From positions 1 through 64,000 of the forward strand of contig JAHFRD010000011.1 in the NCBI GenBank assembly GCA_023258975.1: DNA of 64,000 nt, written 5' to 3'. Below, one piece after another: positions 114 to 46,480 of this stretch. The position numbers and the translations under genes are program-made. The number at the start of each line of letters is the position of its first letter. The stretch's first letter is position 1. The notes under the pieces are model-generated. The model ran no database searches. It saw only the letters and a list, made by a program, of their open reading frames with translations, and was not told the DNA's origin. Source of the DNA: Hydrogenophilales bacterium (GTDB lineage: Bacteria > Pseudomonadota > Gammaproteobacteria > Burkholderiales > Thiobacillaceae).

Positions 114-141
114 TTACTTAGCTTTCGGGAACTGCCGAATT

Positions 142-161
142 CCGGGGCCAATTGGCCCCGG
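142..161. repeat. Perfect 20-bp palindrome between convergent gene ends
   Basis: Both arms read CCGGGGCCAA, with no spacer. It lies between the plus-strand stop at 113 and the minus-strand stop at 197, where a bidirectional terminator would be expected. There is no T-run on either side, so a terminator role is only inferred. Confidence 0.4.
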
Positions 162-196
162 CCTCATTGAAGCTCTGATACTACAGAATCATACTT

Positions 197-14499: not shown

Positions 14500-14509
14500 G
14501 AGGATGGAG
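14500..14509 (+). promoter_or_regulatory. sdhC ribosome-binding region, predicted sRNA target
   Basis: GAGGATGGAG lies directly before the sdhC ATG (14511) and includes its Shine-Dalgarno sequence. It is the exact reverse complement of positions 19497-19506 in the candidate small RNA at the end of the same operon. Pairing would block ribosome entry at the first gene of the operon. Confidence 0.5.
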
Positions 14510-14510
14510 A

Positions 14511-14888
14511 ATGAAGCCAGAGCGCCCTTATTTTCTTGATCTCGCCGCCATCCGCTTGCCCATCGGCGGCATGGTTTCCATCCTGCACCGCGCCAGCGGC
14601 GCGGCGCTCTCGCTGGCGATTCCCTGTCTGCTCTATACCCTGATGCTCAGTCTGCGTTCGCCGGAAGATTTTCAGCGGGTGGCGGACTGGTTCGGCGGGC
14701 TCCTCGGCTGGGTACTTTCCACGCTCACGATCTGGGCGCTGCTGCACCACTTCCTGGCCGGCCTGCGCCACCTCGGTTTCGATCTGGGTTGGGGCGAAGG
14801 CAGGGAAATCGCCCGTGTGACCGCCTGGGCCAGCCTGCTCGCGGCGCTCGTGGTGGCCGCGCTGATCGCTTTGTGGAGGTTCCCATGA
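14511..14888 (+). CDS. sdhC: Succinate dehydrogenase cytochrome b556 subunit
   Basis: The 125-residue inner-membrane anchor of complex II has three predicted transmembrane helices. The family signature [11 protein letters not shown] near residue 25 and a haem-ligand histidine region ([13 protein letters not shown]) near residue 85 are visible. It heads sdhCDAB-sdhE-gltA; its last codons overlap sdhD (ATGA). The leader contains the predicted small-RNA target described at 14500-14509. Confidence 0.95.
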
Positions 14889-15238
14889 GGAGAGTCGGCG
14901 GTGCCCGTCGTGGCCTCGATATGTGGCTGGCGCAGCGCGCCGGCGCGATCTACATGGCCTTGTTTCTGCCGCTGTTCCTGCTCCTCGCGCTCGCCGCGCC
15001 CAGTCTGGATTACGCCGGCTGGCGCGCGCTGTTTCTGCCGTTGGGTATGAAAGTGGCGACCCTGTTGTTCTTCGCCGCGCTGCTGGCGCATGCCTGGATC
15101 GGCCTGCGCGAAATCTTCATCGACTACCTGCACTGCGCGCGCTGCGTGATGCTGCGTCTGTCCCTGTACTTTGCCGTCGCCGCGCTCTACCTGGCCTGCC
15201 TGGTGTGGGCGGCGGACATTCTCTGGAGCGTGAGGTGA
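14885..15238 (+). CDS. sdhD: Succinate dehydrogenase membrane anchor subunit
   Basis: The 117-residue protein has three predicted membrane helices. The haem-ligand histidine lies in [16 protein letters not shown] near residue 70. The start at 14885 overlaps the sdhC stop (ATGA), favouring it over a longer upstream frame. With SdhC it anchors SdhAB and forms the quinone site. Confidence 0.93.
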
Positions 15239-15273
15239 CGGAAATGAGGACGGAAATGAGGACGGAAATGAGG
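15238..15273 (+). repeat. Three tandem 12-bp units carrying three sdhA start codons
   Basis: ACGGAAATGAGG is repeated three times. Each unit contains an in-frame ATG, and the GAGG closing one unit lies six bases before the next ATG as a Shine-Dalgarno sequence. The result is three alternative, equally serviced starts encoding a TEMR repeat. Confidence 0.85.
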
Positions 15274-17043
15274 ATCCCAAAGCGCACATTCGATGCGGTC
15301 ATTGTCGGCGGCGGTGGCGCCGGCCTGCGCGCGGCGCTGCAACTGGCCGAGGCCAACCTCAAGGTGGCGCTGATTTCCAAGGTGTTTCCCACCCGCTCGC
15401 ATACCGTGTCCGCTCAGGGCGGTATCACGGCGGCGCTGGCCAACGTGTCGGACGACAACTGGCACTGGCACATGTACGACACGGTGAAGGGCTCGGATTA
15501 CCTGGGCGACCAGGACGCCATCGAATACCTGTGCCGCAACGCCGCCAGCGCCGTCTACGAGCTGGAACACATGGGCCTGCCGTTCTCGCGTCTGGAGGGT
15601 GGCAAAAACGCCGGAAAAATCTACCAGCGGCCGTTCGGCGGCCAGTCGCAGAACTATGGCGGCGAGCAGGCGATCCGCACCTGCGCGGCGGCCGACCGCA
15701 CCGGCCACGCCCTGCTGCATACCCTGTACCAGCGCAACATCGCCGCCCGCACCCAGTTTTTCGACGAGTTCTTCGCCCTCGATCTGATCCGCGACGCGGA
15801 TGGTTACGTGCTCGGCGTCACCGCGCTGGAAATCGAGACCGGCCAGCCTTGGGCTTTCGAGTCTCGCGCCACCCTGTTGGCCACCGGCGGCGCCTGCCGC
15901 GTCTTCCGCCACTCCACCAACGCCCACATCAACACCGGCGATGGCCTCGGCATGGCGCTGCGCGCCGGCCTGCCGCTGGAAGACATGGAGTTCTGGCAGT
16001 TCCACCCGACCGGCATTCCGGAAGTGGGCAGCCTGATTTCCGAGGGCGTGCGAGGGGAGGGCGGTTTCCTGGAGAACAAGGACGGTGAAAAGTTCATGTC
16101 GCGCTACGCGCCCAACGCCCGCGACCTCGCCTCGCGCGACGTGGTGGCGCGCGCCATCGCCCAGGAATTGCGCGCCGGACGCGGCTGCGGCCCGCGCGGT
16201 GATTATGTGCATTTGAAGATCGAGCACCTCGGCGCCGAGAAAATCAAGGCGCGCCTGCCCGGCATCCGCGAGCTGTCGATGCAGTTCGCCGGCGCCGACC
16301 CGATCACCGACCCGATTCCGGTCACCCCGACCGCGCACTACATGATGGGCGGCATCCCCAGCAACATGCACGGCCAGGTGGTGGCGCCAATCCACACCGG
16401 CCCCGAGGAAGCGGTGCCCGGCCTCTACGCGGTGGGTGAGTGCGCCTGCGTCTCGGTGCACGGCGCCAACCGCCTGGGCGGCAATTCGCTGCTCGATCTG
16501 GTGGTGTTCGGCCGCGCCGCCGGAATGCACATGATCGACTACCTGCGCGAGAACCCGATTCCGCGCCCGCTGCCGCAGGCTGAGGTGGAAAAATCCCTGG
16601 GCCGCCTCGCGCGCTGGGATAAACCCAAGGGCACGGAAACCGTGGCCGGCCTGCGCGGCGACATGCAGAAGGTGATGCAGGATCATTGCGGCGTCTATCG
16701 CACCGAGGCGCTGCTCAAGGAAGGCCTCGCGAAACTGGACCAGGTGGAAGCGCGCCTGCCCGACGCGGCGCTGTCCGATCACAGCAGGATGTTCAACACC
16801 GCCCGCCTGGAGGCGCTGGAGCTGGAAAACCTGATGCCCATCGCCCGCGCCACTCTGGTCTCCGCGCTGGCGCGCACGGAAAGCCGCGGCGCCCACACCC
16901 GCGAGGATCACCCCCAACGTGACGATGACCAGTGGCTGCGCCACACCTTGTATTTCAGTGAGAACGATCAGCTCGACTACAAGCCGGTCAAGCTGAAGCC
17001 GCTGACGGTCGAGACCTTCCAGCCGAAGGAACGCACGTATTGA
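15244..17043 (+). CDS. sdhA: Succinate dehydrogenase flavoprotein subunit
   Basis: The 599-residue flavoprotein oxidises succinate to fumarate. It shows the FAD fold ([20 protein letters not shown]), the covalent-FAD histidine in [11 protein letters not shown], the active-site HPTGIPEVG region and a C-terminal HxxR-type segment. Starts at 15244, 15256 and 15268 are all possible because of the tandem repeat; the first is listed since it has a GAGG eight bases upstream. A 48-bp REP-A palindrome separates it from sdhB. Confidence 0.95.
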
Positions 17044-17091
17044 TGTAGCGCCGGCTTCCAGCCGGCATGCCGGCTGGAAGCCGGCGCTACA
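17044..17091. repeat. 48-bp perfect REP-A palindrome between sdhA and sdhB
   Basis: Two 24-base arms, the left beginning TGTAGCGCCGGCTTCCAGCC, meet with no spacer. It begins immediately after the sdhA stop and ends at the sdhB ribosome-binding site (AAGGAG). As RNA it forms a very stable hairpin that could protect the upstream message or modulate sdhB translation. Confidence 0.95.
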
Positions 17092-17101
17092 AGGAGAAAC
17101 C

Positions 17102-17800
17102 ATGCGCTTTCGCATCTATCGCTACGACCCCGAGTCCGGCAACAAGCCCTCGATGCGGGACTATGAGCTCGACATCGACCCGCAAGGCAGGAAGGTGCTG
17201 GACGCCCTCATCGCCATCAAGGACACGCTCGACGAAAGCCTTTCCTTCCGCCGCTCCTGCCGCGAGGGCGTGTGCGGTTCCGATGGCGTCAATGTCAATG
17301 GCGCCAACGTGCTGGCGTGCATCACGCCGCTGGAGGGTTTGAAGGAACCCATCGAAATTCGGCCGCTGCCGCGTCTCGGCGTGATCCGCGACCTCATCGT
17401 CGATATGGCGCAGTTCTATCAGCATTACCGCGCGGTGAAGCCTTATCTCATCAACCTCGACCCGGAACCGGAAAACGAGCGCCTGCAAAGCCCGGAAGAC
17501 CGCGCCGAACTCGATGGCTTGTGGGAGTGCATCCTGTGCGGTTGCTGCACGACTTCGTGCCCGTCTTTCTGGTGGAATCCGGACAAGTTCCTCGGCCCCG
17601 CCGCGCTGCTGCAGGGCTACCGTTTCATCGCCGATACCCGCGATCAGGCCACCGACGAGCGCCTGGATTTTCTGGAAGACCCCTACCGCCTGTTCCGCTG
17701 CCACGGCATCATGAACTGCGTCGAGGTATGCCCGAAAAACTTGAACCCCACCCAGGCCATCGGCAAAATCAAGACCCTCCTCGTGAAACGGGCGCTGTGA
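17102..17800 (+). CDS. sdhB: Succinate dehydrogenase iron-sulfur subunit
   Basis: The 232-residue electron-transfer subunit carries three clusters. Its [2Fe-2S] site is in [12 protein letters not shown] near residue 60; the [4Fe-4S] and [3Fe-4S] sites are in [12 protein letters not shown] near 145 and [13 protein letters not shown] near 200. The ribosome-binding site AAGGAG directly follows the REP-A palindrome. The stop overlaps the GTG start of sdhE. Confidence 0.97.
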
Positions 17801-18045
17801 CCACATCCATCAACCGTCTGCGCTGGCTCTGCCGGCGCGGCATGTTGGAACTGGATGCCTGGCTCACGCTGTTTCTCGACACGCGCCACGCCGACCTCAC
17901 CCCGGAAATGCAAACCGCTTTTGCCCGGTTGCTGGATCAGGACGATATGGCGCTGTTCGACTGGTTCACGGGAGAGAGCGAGCCGCCCGCCGAATTACAG
18001 GCCATAGTGGAAGCCATCAAATCAACCCGGTATCAACAACCATGA
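17797..18045 (+). CDS. sdhE: SdhE FAD assembly factor
   Basis: The 82-residue SdhE/CptB protein promotes covalent flavinylation of SdhA. The family motif RRGMLELD (RGxxE type) lies near residue 11, followed by [14 protein letters not shown]. It begins with GTG at 17797, overlapping the sdhB stop, and its own stop overlaps the gltA start. Confidence 0.92.
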
Positions 18046-19328
18046 CGACGTCCAACGCCAGCCTCCAGATCGGTGGCCAGTCCATCGAACTCCCGACCAT
18101 GCGGGGCAGCCTCGGCCCCGATGTCATCGACACCCGCGCGCTGGGCGGTCAGGGCTATTTCACCTACGACCCCGGCTTTCTTTCCACCGCCAGCTGCTCC
18201 TCCAACATTACCTATATCGACGGTGACGAGGGCTTGCTCTATCACCGCGGCTACCCCATCGAACAGCTCGCGGAAAAATCGGATTTCCTGGAAACCGCCT
18301 ATCTGCTTTGGCACGGCGAGTTGCCCGATGCCGAACGGAAACGGGATTTCGACCACCTGGTCAGCCAGCACTCCATGCTGCACGACCAGATGCTGTCCCT
18401 GTTCAAGGGCTTCCGCCGCGACGCGCACCCGATGGCGGTGATGGTCTCGATCATCGGCGCGATGGCCGCGTTCTATCCGGAAAGCAGCGATGTGGCCGAC
18501 CCGCACCAGCGTGAAATCTCGATGTTCCGCCTGCTCGCCAAGGTGCCGACGGTGGCGGCCTGGTCCTACAAGTACAACAAGGGCGAACCGTTCATCTATC
18601 CGCAGAACCACCTGAGTTATGCGGAAAATTTCCTGCACATGCTGCACGCCAACCCTTGCGAGGCCTATACGCCCAACCCGGTGCTGGCGCGCGCGCTGGA
18701 TCGCATCTTCATCCTGCATGCCGACCACGAGCAGAACGCTTCCACCTCCACCGTGCGCATGGCCGGCTCCAGTTACGCCAACCCGTTCGCCTGCATCGCG
18801 GCGGGAACCGCCTGCCTGTGGGGGCCGCTGCATGGCGGCGCCAACGAGTCGGTGCTGGCGATGCTGGCGGAAATCGGCGACATCTCGCGCATTGGAGAAT
18901 TCATCGCCCGCGCCAAGGATCGCAGCTCCAGCTACCGTCTCATGGGTTTCGGCCACCGCGTCTACAAGAACATGGACCCGCGCGCCGCGATCATGCGCCA
19001 GACCTGCTACGAAGTGCTCGACGAGCTCGGCCTGCACGATGACCCGCTGTTCAAGATGGCCCTGAAAATGGAACAGATCGCCCTGGAAGACGAATACTTC
19101 ATCGCGAAGAAGCTGTATCCCAACGTCGATTTCTACTCGGGTATCGTCCTGCGCGCCCTGGGCATTCCCACCTCCATGTTCACCGCCATCTTCGCCCTGG
19201 CGCGTACCGCCGGCTGGATCGCGCAGTGGAACGAAATGATCACCACCCCCGGGCACAAGATCGCCCGCCCGCGCCAGCTCTACACCGGCCCACAACGCCG
19301 CGATTTCGTCCCGGTCGACCAGCGCTGA
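18042..19328 (+). CDS. gltA: Citrate synthase
   Basis: The 428-residue type II, NADH-regulated-type citrate synthase shows [11 protein letters not shown] near residue 264, [10 protein letters not shown] near 305 and the C-terminal [15 protein letters not shown]. It is the last gene of the succinate dehydrogenase operon and starts with an ATGA overlap with sdhE. It lacks a clear Shine-Dalgarno sequence, so it probably depends on coupling. The paralogue PrpC at 6985 is shorter and belongs to the methylcitrate cycle. Confidence 0.97.
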
Positions 19329-19439
19329 AGGGGGAAAACCCCTTATGTTGCAGTGCAATGTTGCGGCCGGGCGACTCCTCCACGGATAGTTTTTCCCGCT
19401 AGTGAGATGACGATTGTCCGGCGTCAAGGAATATTAGAA

Positions 19440-19551
19440 GATGCTTATGACGCTGGCGCTAACGCTTACCTCCCTGAGCGTTGTCAGTGTCGTCTCCTCC
19501 ATCCTCCTTCCAAGGTGGATTTAGCCCGGTCGCCCGACCGGGCTTTTTTTT
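19440..19551 (+). ncRNA. Candidate small RNA at the 3' end of the sdh-gltA operon
   Basis: The 380-bp gap after gltA has no convincing gene but ends in a strong terminator. Before it lie a stem-loop (arms AACGCT / AGCGTT, loop exposing CCTCC at 19469-19473) and a single-stranded-looking pyrimidine tract with two more CCTCC motifs (19494-19510). Such anti-Shine-Dalgarno loops plus a terminator are typical of Hfq-type regulatory RNAs. Positions 19497-19506 are exactly complementary to the sdhC ribosome-binding region. The 5' end is a guess: it may be transcribed on its own or cut from the operon mRNA. Confidence 0.55.
19524..19551 (+). terminator. Rho-independent terminator of sdh-gltA / candidate sRNA
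   Basis: A 9-bp GC-rich stem (GCCCGGTCG, 2-nt loop, CGACCGGGC) is followed directly by eight T. A weaker hairpin (GGGG-GAAAA-CCCC) lies immediately after the gltA stop. Confidence 0.93.
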
Positions 19552-46125: not shown

Positions 46126-46245
46126 CGCGGGCCGAAAAAGGCTGTGGGGTGAGTTGGAATGTGTGCGATGGATTCGCCGCTGCTCCCTCACCCCGGCCCT
46201 CTCCCTGGGGGAGAGGGGGGGAAGTGCCGCCCGCCGCGGCCCGCG
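46126..46245 (-). promoter_or_regulatory. Possible expression platform of the btuB riboswitch
   Basis: After the aptamer the minus strand reads CGCGGGCC (46238-46245). About 110 nt later it reads GGCCCGCG directly followed by six T (46126-46133 and below). Pairing would make a terminator stem closing over an inserted hairpin repeat (46185-46217). The mechanism is inferred. Confidence 0.35.
46185..46217. repeat. CCCTCACCCC / CCCTCTCCC hairpin repeat in the btuB leader
   Basis: CCCTCACCCCGGCCCTCTCC followed by a 3-base loop and GGGAGAGGG. Its 9-bp arms form a strong hairpin inside the btuB 5' leader. Sequences of this kind are common dispersed repeats in proteobacterial genomes. Confidence 0.75.
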
Positions 46246-46249
46246 TACC

Positions 46250-46400
46250 TTGCTTCGGGCCGGTCTCCGGGCTCGCGCTTGAAGTGTTCCGCCTTCCCGT
46301 CGCGTGGACAGTGGCTGTTGGAAAACCGTTGAGCGCTTACCGTTGCGGGGGCAGCACAGGTCTTTCACCTGTTTCCCGTTTCACTCACCTTGCGGCGAGC
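46250..46400 (-). promoter_or_regulatory. Cobalamin riboswitch in the btuB leader
   Basis: The minus strand carries the conserved elements in order: GGGAAACAGGTGAAAG, the B12 box core GCTGCCCCCGCAACGGTAAG, AGCCACTGT, GGGAAGGC, and the 3' element GAGCCCGGAGACCGGCC. This is a complete class-I cobalamin aptamer. It lies about 180 nt upstream of the btuB start and should repress btuB when adenosylcobalamin is abundant. Confidence 0.93.
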
Positions 46401-46480
46401 ACCAGAAGCGGGCGGCAGTCTAGGGGAGGATGCGGGTAAATGCCATCCCTCCGAGGAGGTAAGCTCGGTTGACCGTGCTT

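What the first reader, a model, noticed from the sequence alone, without database searches (positions are those of the whole stretch)
19440..19551. Candidate regulatory sRNA at the end of sdhCDAB-sdhE-gltA, perfectly complementary to the sdhC ribosome-binding site
The gene-free 3' region of the operon ends in a strong terminator. It carries a hairpin whose loop exposes CCTCC, plus a pyrimidine tract with two further CCTCC motifs. Positions 19497-19506 (CTCCATCCTC) pair over 10 consecutive bases with 14500-14509 (GAGGATGGAG), which covers the sdhC Shine-Dalgarno sequence. This would be a feedback loop: an RNA made with or from the operon end silences its first gene. Known analogues are the SdhX/RybD 3'-UTR sRNA of E. 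coli and the Neisseria NmsR/RcoF sRNAs, which repress sdh, gltA and prp genes through anti-Shine-Dalgarno loops. Caution: purine-rich ribosome-binding sites and C-rich tracts match by chance more often than random 10-mers.
Basis: partly seen in the sequence, partly recalled or inferred. Interest (0 to 1): 0.8.

Follow-up and report, generated by a model that had tools for sequence, protein, structure and literature searches.

The report
Known anti-ribosome-binding-site small RNA, relocated
The stretch after the citrate synthase gene is a copy of a known small-RNA family thought to block ribosome-binding sites; it was moved there recently, the evidence speaks against a private feedback switch for the succinate dehydrogenase operon, and promoters of its relatives carry what looks like the binding site of a carbon-storage regulator.

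Summary
The element is a member of the known Rfam family RF02278 (Betaproteobacteria toxic / "double-hairpin" sRNA; 59.9 bits, cut-off 50), like Burkholderia ncS27 and Bordetella S17. It is a predicted ~103-nt three-hairpin RNA; its first hairpin is supported by compensatory changes, and it has its own conserved promoter layout.

The proposed sdh feedback loop is not supported. Of 62 family loci read, 53 lie near dnaE, metG or a pentapeptide-repeat, methylase or EF-G-like gene; 7, all in the window's clade, lie behind gltA (one move). Of those seven only the window keeps the exact sdhC match; three lose it at one base, three have no complement. Allowing for folding, 36 of 317 sampled genes pair at least as well.

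New: upstream of RF02278 genes across Betaproteobacteria lies a site like that of PhaR, the polyhydroxybutyrate-sensing regulator: in 44 of 52 loci from genomes with phaR, 1 of 15 without. The window has one at 19343-19363. This would make RF02278 a betaproteobacterial counterpart of Sinorhizobium MmgR.

The parts
19447..19551 (+). RF02278 small RNA gene (predicted start near 19449, end in the T-run)
   Evidence: Rfam RF02278 19491-19551, 59.9 bits, cut-off 50; the same block, with ATTAGA box, in 41 of 42 family loci first read, 40 of them aligned
19447..19493 (+). hairpin 1; loop CCUCCC at 19469-19474 is a third possible anti-SD site
   Evidence: fold; 10 of 19 pairs with changes on both sides; for the whole structure 0 of 500 shuffles reach the covariation score
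19492..19500 (+). conserved linker GUCUCCUCC, the most accessible anti-SD seed (unpaired part 19494-19500)
   Evidence: this stretch was a selection criterion, so its identity is not an independent result
19501..19520 (+). hairpin 2 (weak); its 5' arm holds the second CCUCC
   Evidence: pairs almost invariant, so no covariation test possible
19523..19551 (+). intrinsic terminator
   Evidence: 9 pairs, then T's; helix 4
19414..19419 (+). -35 box TTGTCC
   Evidence: TTG exactly 17 nt before the -10 in 40 of 40 family loci; 16 of 20 further loci by script; not found by the strict consensus scan
19437..19442 (+). -10 box GAAGAT (GANNAT in 39 of 40 loci; GATAAT, GAAAAT, GAGAAT or GACAAT in 30)
19433..19448 (+). 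operator-like inverted repeat ATTAG-N6-CTNAT over the -10
   Evidence: letters C, T, A, T of the second arm identical in 40 of 40 loci; ATTAGA itself was the anchor, and 4 of 20 further loci lack it
19343..19363 (+). PhaR-type site TTATGTTGCAGTGCAATGTTG (palindrome TTGCAGTGCAA at 19348-19358), about 96 bp before the predicted start
   Evidence: 16.4 bits with a matrix made from published S. meliloti PhaR sites; the palindrome TTGCANTGCAA occurs at 4 places in the genome
   Evidence: match exact here, not conserved in the clade
14511..19328 (+). sdhC-sdhD-sdhA-sdhB-sdhE-gltA
   Evidence: NCBIfam; sdhE below its curated cut-off

Best explanation
19447-19551 is the genome's one strong copy of the known RF02278 small RNA. 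It is transcribed from its own sigma-70-type promoter (about 19414-19442), perhaps topped up by read-through from gltA, and ends at the terminator. The unpaired linker GUCUCCUCC, helped by the CU-rich loops, acts with Hfq and pairs with Shine-Dalgarno sequences of many mRNAs (AGGAGAC type), lowering their translation. It is a general brake on uptake and catabolism, not an sdhC-specific feedback. It reached its present place by one relocation, from between an EF-G-like gene or dnaE and a pentapeptide-repeat gene. In the window's subclade it is probably under PhaR, the regulator that reads polyhydroxybutyrate stores. Shown here: family membership, structure, promoter conservation, relocation, the motif and its co-occurrence with phaR. 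Inferred: transcription, Hfq use, targets, PhaR binding.
For: RF02278 above its cut-off, the only such hit in the genome. Above cut-off in 101 of 117 genomes of the GTDB family. Hairpin 1: 10 of 19 pairs with double changes; whole structure 0 of 500 shuffles. Promoter TTG-17 in 40 of 40 loci and, by script, 16 of 20 more; the other 4 lack the ATTAGA anchor but show TTG at 17 by eye. Relocation: of 62 loci read, 7 lie behind gltA, 53 near dnaE, metG or the pentapeptide, SpoU-methylase or EF-G-like genes, 2 near none of these. In all 8 clade members the pentapeptide gene has no sRNA in the upstream stretch I read (up to 420 bases; about 310 in G025). The clade is monophyletic (support 0.982). 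Seed: 9 of the 11 pairings below -6 kcal/mol use the linker. Two Hfq matches. Published relatives act this way: ncS27 (PMC5688073, PMC10987360 passages) and S17, Hfq-dependent with RBS pairing and a direct target (PMC11722255 passages).
Against: No transcript data. The window's promoter is weak by consensus (-10 GAAGAT, 3 of 6) and the strict scan finds none. The linker was part of my patterns for finding relatives. PhaR: the window's site is about 96 bp upstream, not on the -35; three phaR-bearing genus members (G014, G019, G030) have no such site before their sRNA and G045 has one without phaR; genome-wide motif counts do not clearly separate genomes with and without phaR.
Confidence: 0.85

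Rival explanations
1. One reading: a 3'-UTR-derived RNA of sdhCDAB-sdhE-gltA that pairs with the sdhC ribosome-binding site and closes a feedback loop.
For: Exact 10-base match, top 1% by bare duplex energy; no terminator found between gltA and the sRNA; Neisseria NmsRA represses an sdhC-gfp fusion in E. coli, though sdhC regulation was not confirmed in meningococci (PMC5362039 passages).
Against: Match exact in 1 of 7 clade members with the sRNA; GAGGACGGAG in G021, G024, G025 (also G023, where no strong sRNA hit was found and the contig ends after gltA) and at most 4 complementary bases in G012, G027, G028 (starts there inferred from alignment). Location behind gltA is confined to one clade. 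With folding charged, 36 of 317 genes pair as well. gltA itself has no pairing.
Confidence: 0.12
2. Dual biogenesis: after the move the sRNA is made both from its own, decaying promoter and by RNase E processing of gltA read-through, so its level now follows the TCA operon.
For: -10 changed to GAAGAT in 7 of 7 gltA-linked copies and in none of the 33 other loci aligned; only one terminator found, after the sRNA; S17 is processed by RNase E to a form that begins near the CU-rich stretch (PMC11722255 passages).
Against: No expression data; the TTG of the -35, the spacing and the inverted repeat are all kept in the clade.
Confidence: 0.35
3. The conserved block is a small protein gene (27 codons, ATG 19441 to TAG 19524), with the RNA incidental.
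For: An open frame exists (read by eye); a 32-residue frame is also noted in S17L (PMC11722255 passages).
Against: Frame shifted by a one-base deletion in L124 and L125; changes follow base pairing. No codon test was run.
Confidence: 0.03

Closest known systems
RF02278, Betaproteobacteria toxic sRNA / double-hairpin RNAs (ncS03, ncS05, ncS27, ncS62 of Burkholderia cenocepacia; S17 of Bordetella pertussis; four in Herbaspirillum)
   Same: Sequence and structure above the curated cut-off; linker GUCUCCUCCA; second hairpin; terminator; -35/-10 spacing of 17 as mapped for S17
   Different: Behind gltA; has a third, covarying 5' hairpin whose loop carries another CCUCC; one strong copy instead of the three to five reported for Burkholderia
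NmsRA/NmsRB (RcoF1/NgncR163 in the Rfam title of NmsRb) of Neisseria
   Same: Anti-SD CU-rich stretches, three helices in the Rfam model, GATAAT-type -10; TCA mRNAs among its targets
   Different: Rfam NmsRb only 29.9 bits (cut-off 52); tandem copies; targets here not shown
anti-hemB (RF02837, ncS04) of Burkholderia
   Same: Hairpin with loop CCUCCCUGAGCG closely resembles hairpin 1 here
   Different: 40.2 bits, below cut-off 49.5; its genomic place was not compared
MmgR / alpha-r8 sRNA (RF00519) of Sinorhizobium
   Same: Short Hfq-dependent RNA; its promoter is bound and repressed by PhaR/AniA; tied to carbon storage
   Different: Only 23.6 bits here (cut-off 41); control by PhaR is inferred here, shown there
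SdhX/RybD of Escherichia coli (recalled, no call)
   Same: Lies at the end of a TCA operon
   Different: SdhX is cut from the 3' end of its operon mRNA; this RNA has its own promoter layout and a movable location

Membership tests
RF02278 Betaproteobacteria toxic sRNA | covariance-model score above the curated cut-off over the whole model | tested here: met
   59.9 bits vs 50, model 1-64 of 64
RF02278 Betaproteobacteria toxic sRNA | hairpin plus terminator with an unpaired CU-rich anti-SD stretch | tested here: met
RF02278 Betaproteobacteria toxic sRNA | inhibits growth of E. coli when cloned | not testable with these tools
   property reported for the family in PMC5688073; [quoted passage not shown] coli (PMC11722255)
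SdhX/RybD-type 3'-UTR sRNA | no promoter of its own, released from the operon mRNA (recalled) | tested here: not met
   promoter layout conserved in 40 of 40 family loci, whatever the neighbour; sequence evidence only, a read-through contribution remains possible
SdhX/RybD-type 3'-UTR sRNA | operon linkage conserved | tested here: not met
   7 of 62 loci behind gltA, one clade
NmsR (RF02877) | covariance-model score above cut-off | tested here: not met
   29.9 vs 52 bits
anti-hemB (RF02837) | covariance-model score above cut-off | tested here: not met
   40.2 vs 49.5 bits
MmgR (RF00519) | covariance-model score above cut-off | tested here: not met
   23.6 vs 41 bits
PhaR-regulated gene | PhaR-type operator upstream | tested here: met
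   16.4 bits with a matrix from published sites, but about 96 bp before the predicted start; phaR present
PhaR-regulated gene | PhaR binds and controls the promoter | not testable with these tools
   needs a gel shift and a phaR deletion

The most novel reading that the evidence does not exclude
RF02278 sRNAs of Betaproteobacteria are members of the PhaR regulon. PhaR, which is titrated away by polyhydroxybutyrate granules, sits on or near their -35 box; when storage polymer accumulates the sRNA is released and its anti-Shine-Dalgarno seed slows uptake and catabolism. This would be a carbon-storage brake parallel to Sinorhizobium MmgR. It might also supply the repressor implied by the Bordetella S17 authors, and explain why three Burkholderia copies rise in glucose medium (three unrelated sRNAs rise there too).
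Probability: 0.6. Interest if true: 0.66.

Novelty: new member of a known kind. Interest (0 to 1): 0.5.

Why it matters
The sRNA family is known, and the sdh feedback idea should be dropped as stated. Two things are useful beyond that. First, one sRNA gene can be followed as it moves to a new operon while keeping promoter layout, fold and terminator. Second, the papers I could search do not say what controls these widely conserved 'toxic' sRNAs at their promoters; a PhaR-type operator that is mostly there when the genome has phaR and nearly always missing when it does not gives a direct, cheap test, and would tie the family to carbon storage.

Tried and rejected
sdhC as conserved target: rejected after reading its RBS in 18 genomes of the genus including the window (G016 and G026 not readable) and after charging accessibility. 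gltA: no useful pairing. sdhB and sdhA score slightly better than sdhC with folding charged; not followed.

A search for the sRNA behind gltA in 80 named loci from other groups with my model R1: 12 matches up to E = 1, best 18.9 bits (E 0.014); most are short stretches just behind gltA in Rhizobiales-type loci, some found on both strands, which I take for terminators. RF02278 itself was not run on them.

Small-protein reading: rejected (frame shifted in L124 and L125).

Genome-wide counts of TTGCANYGCANMA as proof that the motif is PhaR's: inconclusive; e.g. G144 has 33 and no phaR, G000 has 12 and has phaR. The GAGGATGGAGN{2,10}ATG search in 21 genomes (its gap range leaves out sdhC, whose gap is 1): hits not annotated, not followed. 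No whole-genome target prediction was possible.

Selection and drops: of the 62 family loci, 42 were read first (window, L087-L126, L136; the highest scores plus the genus, no genome of genera g4, g8 and g10; L118 of G012 is just under the cut-off at 49.4 bits) and 20 more from g4, g8 and g10 were added while checking this report. In one search, 40 of 42 were aligned (L096 did not fit my pattern, L108 was a duplicate); the pattern fixed GTCTCCTCCA(C/T)CCTCCT and TATTAGA. In one search, 40 of 42 (L096 unmatched, L104 too short). In one search, 18 of these 40, chosen for similar hairpin-1 length. In one search, 60 of 67 order-level loci and 41 of 42 family loci; all 67 by coordinate. Those 67 loci come from 65 of the 101 genomes outside the window's family that had a match, roughly best scores first. 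In one search the gene caller did not call sdhC, so sdhC was scored separately.

Full report
WHAT IS THERE. Behind gltA stands a block with a long hairpin (19447-19493, loop CCUCCC), an unpaired CUCCUCC linker (19494-19500), a weak second hairpin (19501-19520) and a terminator (19523-19551). It folds far better than shuffles (z -5.72, 0 of 200). Rfam names it: RF02278, Betaproteobacteria toxic small RNA, 59.9 bits against a cut-off of 50, over the whole model; it is the only hit above cut-off in the genome. Below their cut-offs it also resembles anti-hemB (40.2), NmsRb (29.9) and MmgR (23.6). Gene names in the operon and of hppA were checked with NCBIfam (sdhE falls below its curated cut-off).

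THE FAMILY IN PRINT. From passages of PMC5688073, PMC4603805, PMC7011215, PMC11722255 and PMC10987360: the four Burkholderia cenocepacia members are 57-92 nt RNAs, CU-rich in unpaired parts, with 55-80% of predicted interactions at start regions; ncS27 overexpression slows growth; ncS03, ncS05 and ncS27 rise 8.0-, 6.9- and 4.3-fold in glucose medium (ncS06, ncS25 and ncS35, not of this family, rise 2.1- to 3.6-fold). Bordetella S17 depends on Hfq, is cut by RNase E to a 67-nt form and represses a target directly. A search for 'gltA' and 'citrate synthase' in the main text of PMC11722255, PMC7011215 and PMC4603805, and for 'gltA' in PMC5688073, found no occurrence.

WHERE IT SITS. RF02278 is above cut-off in 101 of 117 genomes of the same GTDB family. 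I read 62 loci: 42 at first (window, L087-L126, L136) and 20 from genera I had missed. 53 lie near dnaE, metG or a pentapeptide-repeat, SpoU-methylase or EF-G-like gene, 7 lie behind gltA, and 2 (L096, L136) near none of these (names from Pfam). The seven are G000, G012, G021, G024, G025, G027, G028; in G023 the contig ends 102 bases after the gltA match. These eight form one clade (support 0.982; some inner nodes weak). In all eight the pentapeptide gene, the old neighbour, has no sRNA in the upstream stretch read (up to 420 bases, about 310 in G025). Of the 12 other genus members whose gltA end I read, 11 have a sucA-like reading frame behind gltA instead (read by eye from the start it shares with L262, which NCBIfam matches to 2-oxoglutarate dehydrogenase E1). 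So the sRNA moved once.

STRUCTURE AND PROMOTER. On 18 sequences, hairpin 1 (helices 1 and 2) has 10 of 19 pairs with changes on both sides. For the whole structure the covariation score is 0.214 against 0.133 in shuffles (0 of 500), and sliding the partners drops pairing from 95.8% to at most 45.5%. Hairpin 2 hardly varies and is untested by this. Upstream, all 40 alignable loci have TTG exactly 17 bases before the -10 (GANNAT in 39, GACACT in one) and an inverted repeat ATTAG-N6-CTNAT over it (ATTAGA was the anchor, the rest was not). Of the 20 later loci, 16 show the same TTG spacing by script; L313, L322, L328 and L329 lack ATTAGA but show TTG at 17 by eye. The promoter layout travels with the gene. 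In the gltA clade the -10 is GAAGAT in 7 of 7, a weaker box, and the strict consensus scan finds no promoter. Only one terminator was found in the region, after the sRNA, so gltA read-through could reach it.

THE sdhC CLAIM. Of 319 sampled gene starts, 3 have a bare duplex energy as good as sdhC's -19.6 kcal/mol. But six of the ten bases lie in the arm of hairpin 2, and the sdhC site is itself folded; with both costs charged, 36 of 317 genes do at least as well (my own simplified scoring of ungapped helices, genes called crudely). The favoured seed is the linker, which fits AGGAGAC-type sites: 9 of the 11 pairings below -6 kcal/mol use it. Across the genus sdhC could be read in 18 genomes. The exact match is in G000, G014 and G019. 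G014 and G019 carry the sRNA elsewhere. In the gltA clade it is exact in G000 only; G021, G023, G024 and G025 have GAGGACGGAG, and G012, G027 and G028 have at most 4 complementary bases.

A POSSIBLE MASTER SWITCH. Looking for what controls the family, I read 27 RF02278 loci from other families of the order. TTGCANNGCA occurs within 170 bases upstream in 19 of 27, against 0 of 27 in each of two control stretches. A text search for such strings gave 395 papers, mostly primers among the 40 listed, with a study of PhaR (AniA), the regulator that senses polyhydroxybutyrate, at the top; its consensus contains YGCRNYGCR, and it lists the promoter of the sRNA MmgR among the bound sites (PMC12542648 passages). 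A matrix built only from 14 of that paper's sites scores at least 12 bits in 41 of 60 order-level loci, against 2.8 expected from shuffles and 2 of 81 far-upstream windows.

CO-OCCURRENCE WITH phaR. I then looked for phaR itself (TIGR01848). The core TGCRNYGCR lies upstream in 44 of 52 loci from genomes with phaR and in 1 of 15 without (p = 4e-8); by genome 43 of 50 against 1 of 15; by family 11 of 13 mostly-phaR families against 0 of 5 without, one split family set aside (p = 0.0025); far windows 5 of 106. The locus and genome p-values ignore relatedness; the family one is the fairer. With the matrix at 12 bits instead of the core the table is 43 of 52 against 3 of 15. The single exception by core, G237, is an 85%-complete genome whose congener G196 has phaR. 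Where the TTGCRN half coincides with a -35 box, a -10 follows at exactly 17 bases: 23 of 40 sites have 4 or more matches to TATAAT there, 0 to 5 at other spacings from 10 to 25. S17's mapped promoter has -35 TTGCAT and spacer 17, and its authors postulate that it is repressed in the Bvg-minus mode; whether PhaR does this is my guess.

BACK TO THE WINDOW. In the gltA clade G000, G021, G024 and G025 have phaR and a site of 15.0-16.4 bits; G012 and G027 have neither (G023 and G028 were not tested for phaR). The palindrome TTGCANTGCAA stands at 4 places in the 3.63-Mb genome (the reversed control matches once on each strand): before this sRNA, before a 2-oxoglutarate dehydrogenase gene, before the likely start of an acetate-CoA ligase gene, and inside what looks like a coding sequence. 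Against: the window's site is about 96 bp before the start, not on the -35. G014, G019 and G030 have phaR but no site before their sRNA, and G045 has a 15.1-bit site without phaR. In the window's own family only 8 of 41 loci reach 12 bits (1.4 expected). Motif counts per genome do not clearly follow phaR. So PhaR control is well supported as a pattern for the wider order and only plausible for the window.

IS THIS IN PRINT? Searches of the held open-access library listed no paper that, by title and abstract start, joins PhaR to RF02278. 'PhaR' does not occur in the main text of PMC11722255, PMC5688073, PMC4603805 or PMC7011215. Two reviews on polyhydroxyalkanoate control describe MmgR and no betaproteobacterial RF02278 sRNA in the passages seen (PMC8401924; PMC9049629). 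Subscription papers, including the 2019 NcS27 study, were not read.

VERDICT. An ordinary member of a known sRNA family in an unusual, recently acquired place. The feedback story fails its conservation test. The family-wide PhaR link is the part worth following.

Noticed in passing
L135 (G000:C32:3117-3175), also L129, L130, L131, L133, L134: A second, weak RF02278-like element (about 30 bits, 40 in G020): GGTCTCCTCTC... plus terminator directly after the end of a frame reading ...GFVLLAWDL.TIGKRETRP, in six genus members; could be a 3'-UTR sRNA with an anti-SD stretch.
   Followed up: no
L262 around 1501 and L263 around 1501 (G000 C14 and C35): The palindrome TTGCAGTGCAA also stands shortly before a 2-oxoglutarate dehydrogenase E1 gene and before an acetate-CoA ligase gene, suggesting one regulator over TCA/acetate genes and the sRNA.
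   Followed up: partly
window 19433-19448 and 40 family loci: Inverted repeat ATTAG-N6-CTNAT centred on the -10, in a family where 6 of 7 genera tested (one genome each outside the window's genus) lack phaR; looks like the operator of another, unknown regulator.
   Followed up: partly
L299, L304 (genomes G177, G130): In a family without phaR the sRNA promoter carries TTGCAAAGCAAA, similar but not the PhaR core; perhaps another regulator has taken over.
   Followed up: no
L310-L323 (genus g10): In all 14 loci read of one genus the conserved stretch is GTCTCCTCCAATCC, one base longer than elsewhere in the family.
   Followed up: no
window 137-173 and 46241-46421: A CRISPR direct repeat match (RF01330) and a cobalamin riboswitch (minus strand) in the same window.
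   Followed up: no
genomes G123, G171, G290, G349: Some members of the order carry four to eight RF02278 matches while the other matching genomes listed carry one to three (E up to 1e-7).
   Followed up: no
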